Source: Candidatus Halobeggiatoa sp. HSG11 (GTDB lineage: Bacteria > Pseudomonadota > Gammaproteobacteria > Beggiatoales > Beggiatoaceae). From it: a DNA stretch of 64,000 bases. Both the position numbers and the translations under genes were made by a program. Each line of letters opens with the position of its first letter. The stretch's first letter is position 1. The notes beneath the pieces were generated by a model, which was not told where the DNA came from, did not search any database, and saw nothing but the letters and a program-made list of their open reading frames with translations. The stretch lies in NCBI GenBank assembly GCA_030378105.1, contig JAUCGL010000005.1:1-64000 (forward strand). The letters are read 5' to 3'. Below, piece by piece: positions 31,218 through 64,000 of the stretch.

Positions 31218-31588
31218 CCAAAGTTTTTCAAGAATGCTTCCTATCTTTAAATGTTATCAATAATTTACAATACCACATTTATTCATGGAGCATACTTTAA
31301 ACCCACATTTGGTTTTAAGTTTCTGAAAATCCGTTCCACTCCATTCCCGAAACAACTGTTCACTATGTTTGTAGGGATATGAAGGTTGCTGTTTCTATTG
31401 ATTAACAATTGTTAAACCATGAAATTCATAAGGTGTATAAGCGAAGCTTCATACACCAAAAATTTAAAAAGGTGCATGATGCTATTGCTTATGCACCCTA
31501 CCAAATTATAAGTTTGTTAATTAAACATATACGGCTTATAGCATTATTATACCTTGAATTAAAACAAGTATTGTATTAATATATATTC
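31218..31588. other. Gene-free stretch with hairpin repeats
   Basis: Contains a partial TTTCGGGAA/TTCCCGAAA-type sequence (about 31320-31358, see 51791) and two hairpins with 6-8 bp stems: GGTGTATAAGCGAAGCTTCA-type (31432-31457) and GGTGCAT/ATGCACC (31471-31497). A related hairpin lies at 57199-57224. Confidence 0.55.
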
Positions 31589-31847
31589 TAGGACTTACAC
31601 ATTGACAAAAGTTAAAAAACATTAATTTTTTGTAAATTATAATATTTATAACGTAATTATTGTTCCCAAACTCCTGTTTGGGAACACAATGCCATTTATA
31701 GCTCTGCTTTGAATTTAGGTAAGATATATCATTATTAACGATGAAGCGGAGCTTATTGGCAGTGCGTCCCAAACAAGAGTTTGGGAACGATATTTCGATA
31801 TTTAAACGGTTTCATTAAATGTTTGTCTTGTCAATGCGTAAGTCCTA
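31589..31847. mobile_element. 259-bp MITE of the TAGGACTTACGCATTGA family
   Basis: Left end TAGGACTTACACATTGACAA and right end TTGTCAATGCGTAAGTCCTA are inverted with one mismatch. The interior carries two palindromes, GTTCCCAAACTCCTGTTTGG-type at 31672 and CCCAAACAAGAGTTTGGG-type at 31768. It has no transposase. It ends 38 bp before the rsmB start codon and could supply promoter sequence. Confidence 0.8.
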
Positions 31848-56681: not shown

Positions 56682-57044
56682 ATGCGAGAAAAATCCACCG
56701 TATATGTTATTGATGACGATCAAACTGTTTGTGATTTATTACAAGCTTGGATGGATTTGGAAAAAATACCAGTACAAACATATTTATCTGCTAGGGAATT
56801 TTTAGCAAATTATGACTTGTCAAAGCTTGATTGTTTAATATTAGATGTAGAAATGCCGAATATGAGTGGTTTGGAATTACAAGAATATTTCAATAGGCAA
56901 AAAATTACTATTCCTATTATCATTATGACTGGTTATGCTGATGTATCTATGGCAGTAGAAGCTATGAAAGCTGGAGCTTTGGATTTTTTTGAAAAGCCTC
57001 TTATAAAAAGATTTGTTAATAAAACGGGTAAAGGAATGTATTAA
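56682..57044 (+). CDS. Response-regulator receiver domain, truncated FixJ/TtrR type
   Basis: A 120-residue protein made of one REC domain. The phospho-acceptor region is LDCLILDVEMPNMSGLELQ (Asp at about 55). Switch Thr/Tyr residues are in IPIIIMTGYADVSMAVEAMKAGALDFFEKP, and the acidic pair is in VYVIDDDQT. The residues AMKAGALDFFEKPL are those of FixJ/NarL-type regulators, whose LuxR-type HTH should follow about 15 residues later. Here the frame instead ends in RFVNKTGKGMY, and a repeat element begins 18 bp beyond the stop. It is most likely truncated; as a stand-alone receiver it could act as a phosphate sink. Confidence 0.75.
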   Translation: MREKSTVYVIDDDQTVCDLLQAWMDLEKIPVQTYLSAREFLANYDLSKLDCLILDVEMPNMSGLELQEYFNRQKITIPIIIMTGYADVSMAVEAMKAGALDFFEKPLIKRFVNKTGKGMY

Positions 57045-57619: not shown

Positions 57620-59925
57620 TCAAAGCTCTTCATCACCAAAAACTACATTTTTATCCCATTCTCTTGCCAAAGCAAATTTCTTTTTGGCTTCTTCTGTTTT
57701 GCCTTCATGGAGTAATTCTCTTGCTTGTTGGGCAAGTTCCATTGCTCCGAGGGTGTCTTTGGGTAAATTGGGGCAGGTTTTTTCGTGGGGACGGTTGCCC
57801 ATATATTTTTTCCATTCTTCGTGACTGAAATTACGGTTGACAATAGCACAGGCCTGTTTTACCCATGATTCTGGATCAACGTCCCACAATTTTATGGTTT
57901 TATCCCAACTTCCTGACGCAAGATTTTTTCCATCAGGGCTAAAGTCCACACCCAAAGTCGGAAAGATTATATCGTTATAATCATCATCATAACCAGAAGT
58001 ATTAGAATTAGTTAATAACGCTTCACCGATTGGTTTTCTTGTCTCAACATTCCATAACCCCAAGATTTCATTACTTACAGAAACGAGAAATTTGCTATTT
58101 GGACTGAATATAATCTTATCAATTGAACCTAAGTTAGTATCTCTAAAATCATTAATTAAAAGTTTACCAAGCATTTTTCTAGTGTTAATATCCCATAATA
58201 TCACACCATCATAATTTCCAGAGGAAGCTAAAGTTTTGCCATCTGGACTGAAAGCCACACTATGAATACCAGAAGAATGTCCTATTAATGGCTTACCGAT
58301 AGGTTTTCTTGTATCAACATCCCATAATATAACGGTGTTATCATCACTACCTGAAACCAGAATTTTTCCATCAGGACTGAAAGCCACACTCCTAACATTA
58401 TCAGAATGGTTTACTAATGGTTCACCTGTATATTTTTTTGTCTCAATGTTCCACAGTCTTATAGTATTATCACTATCCCCAAAAGCAATTGTTTTTGCAT
58501 CAGGACTAAAAACCAAACTTAAATACGAATCGGGATTATCTACTAATGATTTGTCAAGTAATTTCCCTGTTTTAACATCCCACAATATTACAGTTATAGT
58601 ATCAGTGTCGCTTGTAGCTGAAACAATAGTTTTACCATCTGGACTAAATGCCAAACTCTCAATAGAACTAGAATGTCCAATTAATGGTTTGCCAATCGGT
58701 TTTTTAGTGTCAAAATTCCACAATATTACTTTATCAAAACTTCCAGAAGCTAAAATCTTGCCATCAGGACTGAAAACTACGCTACTAACATACCAAGAAT
58801 GACCTACCAAAGATTTGTTTAATGATTCTTTTATCTCAACATTCCATAATCGTATAGTCTTATCAATACTGCCAGAAGCTATAGTTTTACCATCAGGACT
58901 AAAAGCTATGCTGTTAATATACCAAAAATGCCCTGATAACGGTTTACCTAGTATTTTTTTATTCTCAGTGTCCCACAATATTATTGTATGATTTTTACTT
59001 TCTAAAGCAAGAATATTATCATCAGAACTGAAAATTGCAGGTCCTTTACCAAATGGTACTTCGAATTTTTTTTTGGTGTAAATATCCAATAATTCTACGC
59101 TATCGTAACCCCCAATAGCAATTGTCTTACTATCATGACTAAAAGATAAGCTAGAAATAGGCAGAGGATAATTTTTTGACAGCAATTTACCTGATGACAT
59201 TTTTGTATCTAAGTTCCACAAGATTACATTACTACCTCCTAATGCAAGAGTTTTACCATCAGGACTAAAATTCATACTTGAAATCCTATTAAAATGGCCT
59301 GACAGTTTGATTAGCGGTTGTTGTGTTTCAATATCCCACAATATAACAACAGTATCATCATTACTTTCTGACGCAAGGAGTTTACCATCAGGGCTGAAAG
59401 CTATGCTAGAAATATTAGAAGAATGACCAATTAATGGTTTACTTAGAGGTTGTTGGGTATCAATATTCCATAATATAACAGTATTATCATAAGTCCCCGC
59501 TGCAAAAATATTATTTTCTGGACTAAAGGCAAAACCACTGACACCAGGAGGCGAATACCAAATTAAAGGTTTGCCAATAGGTTGTCTAGTGGCAATATCC
59601 CATAACATAACAATATTACTAGTGTAATTTTTAATTTGTGAAAAGATGGTTTTGCCATCAGAACTAAAATGTACGTTACTAAAGCCAGAAGGCCCATATA
59701 AAACAGCTTTGCGTTGTCTTTTAGCTTGTAATACCCGCAATAAACTACTAACTCCAGTATCTTTTTCCTTAAAAGCTTGTACTGCTAGTAATAAAGCCTG
59801 TTCATAATGTCCATTAATAGCACTAGGAAATTCGGTAGCCAAAATAGATTGAGTACTTAATTTTTCAGCTAAAGCAATTTGAGCCTGTTCTTCCGCTAAT
59901 ATTCGCTGTTCATTAGCATAAAAAC
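57620..59925 (-). pseudogene. WD40 half of a split TIR-nSTAND-WD40 gene
   Basis: The open frame starts at the element boundary (59925), reading SFYANEQRILAEEQAQIALAE and then a helical linker. It then gives a 740-residue WD40 region from the TTG at 59842 that contains 14 blades, each ending I/V-x-LWD/N; these would form two seven-bladed propellers. The conserved tail (WVKQACAIVNRNFSHEEWKKYM; KTCPNLPKD) of STAND-WD40 proteins follows. There is no ATG near the 5' end. The upstream half (60050-61717) ends LMLVGF then NVN-stop; removing the 131-bp element and one TAAA copy gives GF-SFYANEQ in frame. So this is the 3' part of one gene interrupted by insertion. Translation from TTG remains possible. 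Confidence 0.85.
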
Positions 59926-59929
59926 TAAA

Positions 59930-60060
59930 ATGTGAATTAAGAGCTAAAAAATTATTTTAAAAATCATGTAATTAAGAATTATAATTTCGGAAGTTTATAA
60001 TGAACAATTTTTTAACTCATTGTTTTTAAAAGATACATAATTTTAGCTCTTAATTCACAT
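59930..60060. mobile_element. 131-bp MITE interrupting the TIR-nSTAND-WD40 gene
   Basis: Perfect 20-bp inverted ends ATGTGAATTAAGAGCTAAAA (59930-59949) and TTTTAGCTCTTAATTCACAT (60041-60060), flanked by a 4-bp target duplication TAAA (59926-59929 and 60061-60064). It is noncoding and contains no transposase. Exact excision with one target copy restores the reading frame of the host gene. Confidence 0.9.
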
Positions 60061-61717
60061 TAAAGCCAACCAACATCAAAATCACTATCGTAACCACCCC
60101 AATCAAACTAAAACGCCATATCATCTGATACCGAATACTCTTTCGAACAAATTCCAATCCCAATTTTGATAATAGTAATTTATCAGCATTATTACTAATA
60201 CATTCTTCAGCTATTCCCAGTTTTGGACCTTGCAACAGATAACCTTTAGATTTTTCGTGTTCCTTCCAATCCTTAGCAGCAATATCAATTTCTCGCCAAA
60301 TCAATTCAGCATTCCGTCCATCCTCAATCCAACCCTGCAACCAAGGCCAACTTGTTATCAACACATCATGAGCAATATCAACCCTCTTTTCTTCCCTACC
60401 ACTGAGAGTCAACAAACGATTATTTGCCAAATGCTCAATCGTCTCACCAACATCACCACCAACCAAATCATCAAACAACTGTTGCCGACGAGTATCCGGC
60501 CTTCCCTCCCCAAACTGAATCAAACGTAAAAATACCCGCTTCGCAACCATTACTTGTGATTTATCCAAACCAGCCAACACACCATCAGCATAAAGAGCAA
60601 TCGCTGCCGGCAAACCCTTCAACAAACTATTCTCTTGATAAACAATAGTTTCATAATCACTCAATGACAAAAAACGCCGTTCCAAACGCTGCCAAAGCAA
60701 CACCAAAGTCTGTTGCACCAAAGGCAAAAATCCCGGCTCCAAAGCAGCATCATTAACCAACCGCTCAACCAAAGCATCCTCAATATACACCCCAACCTGT
60801 TTAGCCGGCTCCTCAATCGCCTCCCGCAAACCATCTGGAGTCAACGGCAACACATTCTCAATACAATGTTTTTCAATCTTATCCCAATAAGGCAAACCCA
60901 GCAAATTTGAATAAAAATCATCCCGAACCGTTATAATCAACGAACAATTCCGAGCCTCAAGCAACGCCAAAAAACTTTGCTGAAACTCAGCTTTCCGCTC
61001 ATCCGATAAATAAAACAACTCCTCAAACTGGTCAATAATAAAAAGTTGCCGTTTATCAATTGATTCACCAATGTTAAAATCAGCCGGCCGCATCTTATGA
61101 ACATACCAATTTGTATCTAATTCAGCCACCAAACCAGCAAAAACCAAAGAAGACTTCCCACTTCCAGAAGGCCCAATAATAGTAATCAAACGATGAATTT
61201 GCAGCTTATCCAATAAATTAGTTATTTTCTCTGTACGACCAAAAAAATACTTGCTTTCAGTGAAAGGTTCTAAACCGGGATAAGGACAATCTGGCTTAGG
61301 AGACGCAACTGGCAATGGCTTTTTCAATTCCTTACAAAGTTCTTGAATTGCCTTTTTCTGTAATTTAGCATCAGTTGCATCCAAATAAGTAAGCATTTTT
61401 AAACGTGGAGGCAACTCAACTGGATGTAAAAGCAATGAAATAACTAGATTACTATCAGTTTCTAAACCATAATGTCGAGCTAACGACTCAACAAACTTAT
61501 TATAATCATCAGCAAAATACGCTGGCGACAAAATAAGCAAACAACGCTGACTTTGTTCAATTGCCTCTTCGAATGCTTCTATTTTAGGTATACCAAGCCC
61601 AAATGTTGCTTCTGAATGATAATTTATTCCAGAAGACTGCAAAGCATCCAATAAATAACCTTCCACCCAAGCCTTATCAGCCTCAGCATAAGAAATAAAT
61701 AAATCGTACTTTTTCAT
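60050..61717 (-). CDS. TIR-nSTAND ATPase half of a split TIR-nSTAND-WD40 gene
   Basis: A 555-residue frame, stopping inside the MITE. The TIR-like domain (1-138) reads KKYDLFISYAEADKAWVEGYLL and SPAYFADDYNKFVESLARHYG. The linker CPYPGLEPF and FFGR introduces nSTAND1. Walker A is GPSGSGKSS (182-190), Walker B LFIIDQFEELF (226-236). Winged-helix/arm regions contain EPGFLPLVQQTLVLLWQRL and GEGRPDTRRQQLF. One membrane segment (533-551) reads IWRFSLIGVVTIVILMLVGF. Such STAND proteins oligomerise on sensing a trigger; the TIR may consume NAD+. The next gene upstream (61839-63770) is a paralog. Confidence 0.88.
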   Translation of the reverse strand: MKKYDLFISYAEADKAWVEGYLLDALQSSGINYHSEATFGLGIPKIEAFEEAIEQSQRCLLILSPAYFADDYNKFVESLARHYGLETDSNLVISLLLHPVELPPRLKMLTYLDATDAKLQKKAIQELCKELKKPLPVASPKPDCPYPGLEPFTESKYFFGRTEKITNLLDKLQIHRLITIIGPSGSGKSSLVFAGLVAELDTNWYVHKMRPADFNIGESIDKRQLFIIDQFEELFYLSDERKAEFQQSFLALLEARNCSLIITVRDDFYSNLLGLPYWDKIEKHCIENVLPLTPDGLREAIEEPAKQVGVYIEDALVERLVNDAALEPGFLPLVQQTLVLLWQRLERRFLSLSDYETIVYQENSLLKGLPAAIALYADGVLAGLDKSQVMVAKRVFLRLIQFGEGRPDTRRQQLFDDLVGGDVGETIEHLANNRLLTLSGREEKRVDIAHDVLITSWPWLQGWIEDGRNAELIWREIDIAAKDWKEHEKSKGYLLQGPKLGIAEECISNNADKLLLSKLGLEFVRKSIRYQMIWRFSLIGVVTIVILMLVGFNVN

Positions 61718-61838: not shown

Positions 61839-63770
61839 TCATCTCCTATAATAGTACTGATCTTCTATTAAAATCCGCATATGTTCCAATTCCCGTTTAC
61901 ATCTCTGTTCTTCGCTTATTTCTCTTTCTTTTTGTCCCTTCTTTCTTTCTTTTTCTGCTGTTTCAACTGCTTCAGCACGTTTACGCTGCTCTTTAGCAAT
62001 AACGTATGCGTGTTCCAATTCCTGTTGTTGTCTTATTTCTTTTTCTTTTTGTCTCTCCTTTCTTTCTGCTTCTGCCATTTCAAGTGCTTCAGCACGTTTA
62101 CGCTGTTCTTCAGCAATAGTCTGTGCTTGTTCTAACTCTCGTTTTTGTACTGTTTCTTTTTCTCTTTCTATCGTATCAATAATTTCTCGACTTTTATCAA
62201 CTAATTCCAAAAACTCACCAGAATAACCTAATTCCTTAGCATCAAAACTACTTAACCAATTCTCGACTTCTCTCAACTCAACAGTATCTAAAAAACCACC
62301 TTTTCGCTCCAAAATTTCCCAATTTTTAACCTTAGCCTCCAAACGCCGCCGAACCAATTCAGAATTACATCTATCCTTAATCCAATTCTGTAAACTAGGC
62401 CAACTATTAATCAATGCTTCATGAGCAATATCAACTCTTTTTTCATCTTTACCACTAAGAGTCAACAAACGATTACTTGCTAAATACTCAATTGTATCAT
62501 CGGCATCATTACCAACTAAATTACTATACAACTGCTGCCGACGAGTATCAGGCCTCCCTTCCCCAAACTGAATCAAACGCAAAAACACCCGCTTCGCAAT
62601 CACCATTTGCGACCTGTCCAAACCAACCAACACACCATCAGCATAAAGAGCAATCGCCGCCGGCAAACCCTTCAACAAACTATTCTCTTGATAAATAATA
62701 GTTTCATAATCACTCAATGACAAAAATCGCCGTCCCAAACGCTGCCAAAGCAATACCAAAGTTTGTTGCACCAAAGGCAAAAATCCCGGCTCCAAAGCAG
62801 CATCATTAACCAACCGCTCAACCAAAGCATCCTCAATATACACCCCAACCTGTTTAGCCGGCTCCTCAATCGCCTCCCGCAAACCATCTGGCGTCAACGG
62901 CAACACATTCTCAATACAATGGTTTTCAATCTTATCCCAATAAGGCAAACCCAGCAAATTTGAATAAAAATCATCCCGAACCGTTATAATCAACGAACAA
63001 TTCCGAGCCTCAAGCAACGCCAAAAAATCCAGATGAAAATCAGCTTTCCGCTCATCCGATAAATAAAACAACTCCTCAAACTGGTCAATAATAAAAAGTT
63101 GCCGTTTATCAATCGGTTCACCAATGTTAAAATCAGCCGGCCGCATCTTATGAACACACCAAGTTGCATCTAATCCAGCCACCAAACCAGCAAAAACCAA
63201 AGAAGACTTCCCACTTCCAGAAGGGCCAATAATAGTAATTAAACGATGAATTTGCAGCTTATCCAATAAATTAGTTATTTTCTCTGTACGACCAAAAAAA
63301 TACTTGCTTTCAGTGAAAGGTTCCAAACCGGGATAAGGACAATCAGGCTTAGGAGCCATAACTGGTAATGGCTTTTTTAATTTTTTACAAAGTTCTTGAA
63401 TGACTGTTTCCCGTGACTTATCATCAGTTGCATCCAATTTATTAAGCATTCCTAAACGTGAAGGTAACTCAACTGACTTTAAAATAAACGGAATAACCAA
63501 CCAAGCATCAGTTTCTAAACCATAATGTTGAGCTAACGACTCAACAAACTGATTATAATCATCTGCAAAGTAAGCCGGCGACACAATAAGCAAACAACGA
63601 CTACTTTGTTTAATCGCATCTTCAAATGCTGTCAATATTGGCTTACCTAGCTCAAAAGTTGCCCTTGAATGACAACGTACCTCAGCAGACTGCAAAGCAT
63701 CCAATAAATAACCCTCTACCCATGCCCTATCATCCTCAGCATAGGAAATAAATAAGTCGTATTTTTTCAT
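61839..63770 (-). CDS. TIR-nSTAND ATPase with C-terminal coiled coil
   Basis: A 643-residue paralog of the 60050 gene. The nSTAND core (about residues 140-400) is nearly identical (GPSGSGKSS, LFIIDQFEELF, EPGFLPLVQQTLVLLWQRL), while the TIR domain (1-138) and the region after 400 differ clearly, indicating recombination or conversion confined to the core. There is no WD40 or membrane segment. Instead, residues 510-640 form a charged coiled coil made of repeats of the type RKRAE-A-E-A-ERKE-QKE-E-Q-ELE (three units), ending RILIEDQYYYRR. It may be a truncated or alternative sensor end. Start ATG at 63770. Confidence 0.85.
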   Translation of the reverse strand: MKKYDLFISYAEDDRAWVEGYLLDALQSAEVRCHSRATFELGKPILTAFEDAIKQSSRCLLIVSPAYFADDYNQFVESLAQHYGLETDAWLVIPFILKSVELPSRLGMLNKLDATDDKSRETVIQELCKKLKKPLPVMAPKPDCPYPGLEPFTESKYFFGRTEKITNLLDKLQIHRLITIIGPSGSGKSSLVFAGLVAGLDATWCVHKMRPADFNIGEPIDKRQLFIIDQFEELFYLSDERKADFHLDFLALLEARNCSLIITVRDDFYSNLLGLPYWDKIENHCIENVLPLTPDGLREAIEEPAKQVGVYIEDALVERLVNDAALEPGFLPLVQQTLVLLWQRLGRRFLSLSDYETIIYQENSLLKGLPAAIALYADGVLVGLDRSQMVIAKRVFLRLIQFGEGRPDTRRQQLYSNLVGNDADDTIEYLASNRLLTLSGKDEKRVDIAHEALINSWPSLQNWIKDRCNSELVRRRLEAKVKNWEILERKGGFLDTVELREVENWLSSFDAKELGYSGEFLELVDKSREIIDTIEREKETVQKRELEQAQTIAEEQRKRAEALEMAEAERKERQKEKEIRQQQELEHAYVIAKEQRKRAEAVETAEKERKKGQKEREISEEQRCKRELEHMRILIEDQYYYRR

Positions 63771-63793: not shown

Positions 63794-63906
63794 TGAATCA
63801 GAATTTTCAGAATTAGAGAATTAGCAGAATTTAAAACCTAAAACAATAAGTCAATGAATTTGATTTTTAATTCTGTAAATTCTTGAATTCTGTTAATTCT
63901 GATTCA
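63794..63906. repeat. Inverted repeat of AATTCTG/CAGAATT units
   Basis: TGAATCAGAATT at 63794-63805 pairs with AATTCTGATTCA at 63895-63906. Further CAGAATT and AATTCTG units lie between. The repeat overlaps the stop codon of the partial gene at the window edge and may be a terminator-like or element remnant. Confidence 0.6.
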
Positions 63907-64000
63907 GACAATTTTAGGTAATTCTCCTTTCAAAGCCTCTATCAAACGCTCAAATTCCCGTTCAGCACGGCGAGAATGCGAAAGATTCAACGTTGTCAAC
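63904..64000 (-). CDS. Partial gene at window edge, C-terminal end only
   Basis: About 32 codons end in TGA at 63906-63904. The visible end reads LTTLNLSHSRRAEREFERLI, then EALKGELPKIV. It is basic then helical, with no domain identifiable. It lies 134 bp upstream of the TIR-nSTAND gene on the same strand, so it could belong to the same accessory block. Confidence 0.5.
   Translation of the reverse strand, partial: LTTLNLSHSRRAEREFERLIEALKGELPKIV

What the first reader, a model, noticed from the sequence alone, without database searches (positions are those of the whole stretch)
57620..61717. A 131-bp MITE splits a TIR-nSTAND-WD40 gene and can be removed in frame
Seen: perfect 20-bp inverted ends (59930-59949, 60041-60060), a TAAA duplication on both sides, and two half-genes. 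Removing the element plus one TAAA joins GGC TTT to AGT TTT TAT GCT AAT in one frame. This rebuilds about 1,320 codons: TIR (1-138), nSTAND, one membrane helix, linker and 14 WD40 blades. Neither half has decayed: no other stop or frameshift is seen, so the insertion looks recent. Inference: a defence or signalling STAND protein has been switched off by a small element and might be switched on again by precise excision.
Basis: partly seen in the sequence, partly recalled or inferred. Interest (0 to 1): 0.85.

Follow-up and report, generated by a model that had tools for sequence, protein, structure and literature searches.

The report
Small transposon splits a cell-death gene
A 131-letter parasitic DNA element, present in roughly 25 copies in this bacterium, recently jumped into and broke a gene for a large immunity- or cell-death-type protein; it is a clear but ordinary case of gene inactivation, and nothing available here shows that the gene is switched back on.

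Summary
Window 59930-60060 is a 131-bp MITE with 20-bp perfect inverted ends and a TAAA duplication. It has about 29 hits in its own genome, nine of them 100% identical (3 complete, 6 at contig ends). Other copies also carry 4-bp T-rich duplications. The element plus one TAAA is 135 bp and puts five in-frame stops into a TIR-nSTAND1-TM-WD40 gene; the empty-site frame is 1320 aa. Uninterrupted homologues run colinearly across the junction, which excludes two unrelated genes or an assembly misjoin. The WD40 half has no in-frame ATG for 116 codons and is probably not made. The likely mobiliser is an IS982-like insertion sequence seen at contig ends; the MITE ends match its left end at 19 of 20 positions. 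'Switched off' is well supported. 'Can be switched on by precise excision' is only arithmetic: no reads and no close orthologue were available. MITE gene disruption is already published for Thiomargarita, and IS982-derived MITEs are known. A related copy splits a TPR-CHAT gene. The neighbourhood (a caspase-TIR gene beside two TIR-nSTAND1 genes) is arguably more interesting than the MITE.

The parts
59930..60060 (.). MITE, 131 bp, near-palindromic, non-coding
   Evidence: 29 hits in own genome, 9 at 100%; long hairpin, z -6.7 and -7.0
59930..59949 (+). left terminal inverted repeat ATGTGAATTAAGAGCTAAAA
60041..60060 (-). right terminal inverted repeat, perfect match
59926..59929 (.). target-site duplication TAAA, left copy
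60061..60064 (.). target-site duplication TAAA, right copy
60050..61717 (-). 5' half: TIR-nSTAND1-TM, 555 aa, stop codon lies inside the element's end
60062..60124 (-). codons for the membrane helix directly before the insertion
   Evidence: hydropathy; same helix in homologues
57620..59956 (-). 3' half: linker and WD40 repeats, stop-to-stop frame; first TTG 59842, first ATG 59608
61839..63770 (-). neighbouring paralogue TIR-nSTAND1-coiled coil, 643 aa, no WD40, 79% identical over residues 1-527
63904..64000 (-). 3' end of a caspase-TIR gene that continues to about 65163 on the same contig

Best explanation
A non-autonomous transposable element (MITE) inserted recently, with a 4-bp TAAA duplication, just after the membrane-helix codons of a TIR-nSTAND1-TM-WD40 gene. 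The element's end supplies an in-frame stop, so at most TIR-nSTAND1-TM without the WD40 sensor can be made; the WD40 half has no good start and is probably silent. The element was most likely moved in trans by the transposase of an IS982-like insertion sequence with matching ends in the same genome. Shown: anatomy, family, target duplications, stops, colinear uninterrupted homologues. Inferred: mobilisation by that IS, recency, loss of function. Not shown: excision or switching.
For: Family of copies with matching ends and own 4-bp duplications; five stops in the insert and a 1320-aa empty-site frame; homologues G022, C312 and G009 align through the junction in single stretches, and G009 and G002 share helix and junction motif FYAN; WD40 half lacks ATG until codon 117. 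IS ends: left 19/20 and right 17/20 identical to the MITE ends, with transposase N- and C-termini next to them; both parts lie in one ~980-bp element in relative G006, which is weakly IS982-like.
Against: The parental IS was seen in this genome only as contig ends, never complete. The IS982 match is below the curated cut-off. Recency rests on identity to sister copies and lack of decay, not on a dated orthologue. The 555-aa product could still do something.
Confidence: 0.93

Rival explanations
1. Reversible switch: the transposase excises the MITE precisely often enough that a subpopulation carries the intact gene, so the insertion is a phase-variable off state.
For: Element plus one TAAA is removable in frame and both halves are intact; the family looks recently active. 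Precise-excision switching is known for IS492 and IS1301 (PMC5493358).
Against: No excised molecule, empty site or orthologue was found; frame restoration follows from any TSD insertion. The contig was assembled with the element in place. Most copies are intergenic, as for a parasite. No source found here shows frequent precise excision of a bacterial MITE.
Confidence: 0.05
2. Gene fission kept for use: the truncated TIR-nSTAND1-TM protein works without WD40, like its neighbour paralogue that ends before any WD40.
For: The adjacent paralogue (643 aa) has TIR and nSTAND1 but no WD40; Walker motifs in the 5' half are intact by sequence reading.
Against: The WD40 half is undecayed although apparently unused, so the event is too young to infer retention by selection; the paralogue has a different, coiled-coil tail.
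Confidence: 0.1
3. Assembly misjoin of two unrelated genes at a repeated element.
For: Identical copies break contigs at 120-126 bp, so the repeat does disturb the assembly.
Against: Both flanks carry TAAA, join in frame, and are colinear with uninterrupted homologues.
Confidence: 0.01

Closest known systems
MITEs of Candidatus Thiomargarita nelsonii, e.g. the hupL MITE (PMC4853749)
   Same: Short non-coding element with inverted ends and direct repeats, repeated through a sulphur-bacterium genome, interrupting a protein gene
   Different: hupL MITE has 19-bp ends and 10-bp direct repeats and was linked to a Yhg-A (PD-(D/E)XK) element; here 20-bp ends, 4-bp TSD and DDE-type IS ends
MITECca01 of Cardinium, derived from the IS982-family element ISCca4 (PMC9769881)
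   Same: MITE sharing terminal repeats with an IS982-family element, mostly intergenic, sometimes inactivating genes
   Different: About 240 bp, endosymbiont genome, parental IS complete in the genome
Precise-excision phase variation by IS492 and IS1301 (described in PMC5493358)
   Same: Element in a gene whose exact removal would restore it
   Different: Excision was observed there; here it is not shown, and the element has no transposase
nSTAND1-WD40 proteins of relatives (G002 C236, G009 C47, G022 C207, own C312)
   Same: nSTAND1, linker and WD40 in the same order; helix at the same place in G002 and G009
   Different: Uninterrupted; N-terminus is caspase in G002 and G009 and phosphorylase-like in G022 instead of TIR

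Membership tests
MITE | short, non-coding, perfect or near-perfect terminal inverted repeats | tested here: met
   131 bp, 20-bp perfect ends; stops in all frames of the gene strand
MITE | target-site duplication at independent insertions | tested here: met
   TTAA, TAAA, TTGA, TTTA and TATA at other complete copies; three damaged own copies do not match
MITE | multiple dispersed copies | tested here: met
   29 hits in own genome, diverged members in three congeners
MITE | ends shared with an autonomous element in the genome | tested here: inconclusive
IS982 family (mobiliser) | transposase above the family cut-off | tested here: not met
   Fragments from G006 score 42 and 24.7 bits against a cut-off of 130 for the whole protein; so only 'IS982-like'
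TIR-nSTAND1-WD40 protein | TIR, nSTAND1 and WD40 domains in one frame | tested here: met
   Each domain above its Pfam cut-off in the two halves, empty-site frame open for 1320 aa
Anti-phage defence system | match to a known defence family model or shown protection | tested here: inconclusive
   PADLOC gives only partial weak matches, PDC-S66 4.6e-07 over 70 aa and mad3 5.2e-05; no assay
Phase-variable switch | both states present in a population | not testable with these tools

The most novel reading that the evidence does not exclude
The element is a reversible off-switch of a bacterial death platform: a caspase-TIR protein is recruited by TIR-TIR contact to a membrane-anchored TIR-nSTAND1-WD40 sensor, and transposase-driven precise excision re-arms the sensor in part of the population.
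Probability: 0.04. Interest if true: 0.75.

Novelty: new member of a known kind. Interest (0 to 1): 0.3.

Why it matters
It is a clean example of a MITE disarming a large STAND cell-death-type gene in a lineage known for its mobile-element load. A sister-subfamily copy splits a TPR-CHAT gene, so both clearly intragenic copies found hit conflict-type genes. Two cases are too few to claim a bias, but the question can be tested across the lineage. The caspase-TIR / TIR-nSTAND1 cluster also gives a concrete hypothesis for TIR domains acting as adaptors.

Tried and rejected
Misjoin at the repeat: rejected (TSD, frame, homologues). Known structured RNA: no Rfam match at gathering score. MITE on plasmids or phages: no match. 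Coding insert like Rickettsia palindromic elements: 135 bp is 45 codons, but five stops exclude it. Element promoter driving the WD40 half: only one 9/12 site on that strand, at 60069-60040; the region has 8 sites against 3.5 +/- 1.8 in shuffles, most on the other strand. Close orthologue in public species genomes: pattern scan found none. Complete parental IS in this genome: not found. A scan with CysRS only placed the organism roughly; the nearest hit, 67% identical, is a Thiotrichales MAG.

Full report
OBSERVATION. The sequence at 59930-60060 has 20-bp perfect inverted ends and TAAA on both sides. It is not a chance palindrome. The element matches 29 places in its own 5.2-Mb, 326-contig genome, nine of them at 100%. 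Its end sequence occurs 29 times on each strand with up to 3 mismatches, against 1 for the reversed control. Six of the nine identical hits lie at contig ends and stop at 122-126 bp, as expected when a repeat defeats the assembler. Two contig ends may therefore represent one copy, and I estimate roughly 25 real copies. Other complete copies carry TTAA, TAAA, TTGA, TTTA or TATA duplications; three damaged copies do not match. Three congener genomes hold full-length diverged members. As RNA the element folds into a long hairpin on either strand (z -6.7 and -7.0).

EFFECT ON THE GENE. On the minus strand the gene reads to residue 552 and then, from the element's terminal repeat, runs into a stop. 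The insert adds exactly 45 codons with five stops. Joining the flanks to show the empty site gives one open frame of 1320 aa. The halves are TIR_2, nSTAND1 and one helix, and linker plus WD40. The decisive evidence that this was one gene is comparative. Uninterrupted proteins from G022, G009 and contig C312 of the same genome align through the junction in single stretches. G009 and G002 share the helix and the motif at the join (ASFGFYAN and AGFGYYAN, against VGFSFYAN). The WD40 half has no ATG until codon 117 of its open frame (59608), already in the repeat region, and its first TTG (59842) has no visible ribosome-binding site. It is probably not translated.

WHAT MOVES IT. Ten contig ends carry the C-terminus of a transposase running into ATGTGAATTAAGAGCTGACT. 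Three others carry ATGTGAATTAAGGGCTAAAA followed by a transposase N-terminus; the search with the N-terminus of the relative's transposase recovered the one on C1. In relative G006 both parts lie in one element of about 980 bp. Its transposase fragments resemble NCBIfam IS982 at 42 and 24.7 bits, below the curated cut-off, so 'IS982-like' is tentative. By direct reading, the MITE ends match the IS left end at 19 of 20 positions and the right end at 17 of 20. A 251-bp element on C234 has the same ends with transposase remnants inside, a plausible intermediate.

HOW RECENT, AND IS IT REVERSIBLE. Identity to eight other hits and intact halves argue for a young insertion. No congener has a homologue closer than 38% identity, so the insertion could not be dated by presence and absence. 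The in-frame join follows automatically from any insertion with a duplicated target and is not evidence for switching. Precise-excision switches exist for whole IS elements (PMC5493358), but nothing tested here shows excision. I give the switch 5%.

CONTEXT. The split gene lies next to a 79% identical TIR-nSTAND1 paralogue without WD40 and, beyond the window edge, a caspase-TIR gene, all on one strand. In G002 and G009 the caspase is fused directly to nSTAND1-TM-WD40. By the logic of domain fusion this suggests that here TIR domains join the caspase to the STAND proteins. In alignment to TLR2-type TIRs, valine stands at the usual catalytic glutamate position of the TIR-nSTAND1 protein, and by sequence reading the paralogue has the same valine. 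That fits an adaptor rather than an NADase. This is inference.

OTHER COPIES. Of the complete copies in this genome with both flanks on one contig, only two clearly interrupt a long frame: this one and one on C271, which splits a TPR-CHAT gene with a TTTA duplication. The rest are intergenic or near gene ends, apart from two unclear cases (L021 and L019).

NOVELTY. MITEs disrupting genes are reported from Thiomargarita (PMC4853749) and reviewed across prokaryotes (PMC10969869), and IS982-derived MITEs are described (PMC9769881). I found no description of this family or this target in the papers searched. Verdict: a new member of a known kind.

Noticed in passing
L226:7908-9164 (contig C282 63907-65163, just beyond the window end): A 419-aa protein with an N-terminal caspase domain (His and Cys motifs present) and a C-terminal TIR domain, upstream of two TIR-nSTAND1 genes on the same strand. 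No other caspase-TIR protein of this kind appeared in 58 relatives, while caspase is fused to nSTAND1-TM-WD40 in G002 and G009.
   Followed up: partly
L227:3001-3130 (contig C271 18835-18964): A MITE of an 82%-identical subfamily, with TTTA on both sides, splits a TPR-CHAT gene: a second conflict-type gene broken by the same kind of element.
   Followed up: partly
window 61304-61717 and 63360-63770: Both TIR domains have valine where TLR-type TIRs have the WCxxE glutamate, while the caspase-TIR protein appears to keep glutamate there (and sequence reading).
   Followed up: partly
window 60062-61717 versus 61839-63770: The two paralogues are a mosaic: codons about 151-345 are 93-100% identical in DNA, the TIR part 72-88%, and the region after codon 480 unrelated. 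This suggests gene conversion of the NTPase core.
   Followed up: partly
L052:2769-3020 (contig C234 about 31454-31706): A 251-bp element with the same ends and transposase remnants inside, possibly an intermediate between the IS and the MITEs.
   Followed up: partly
window 56682-57044: A response-regulator receiver ORF of only 120 aa ends soon after its receiver domain and may be truncated.
   Followed up: no
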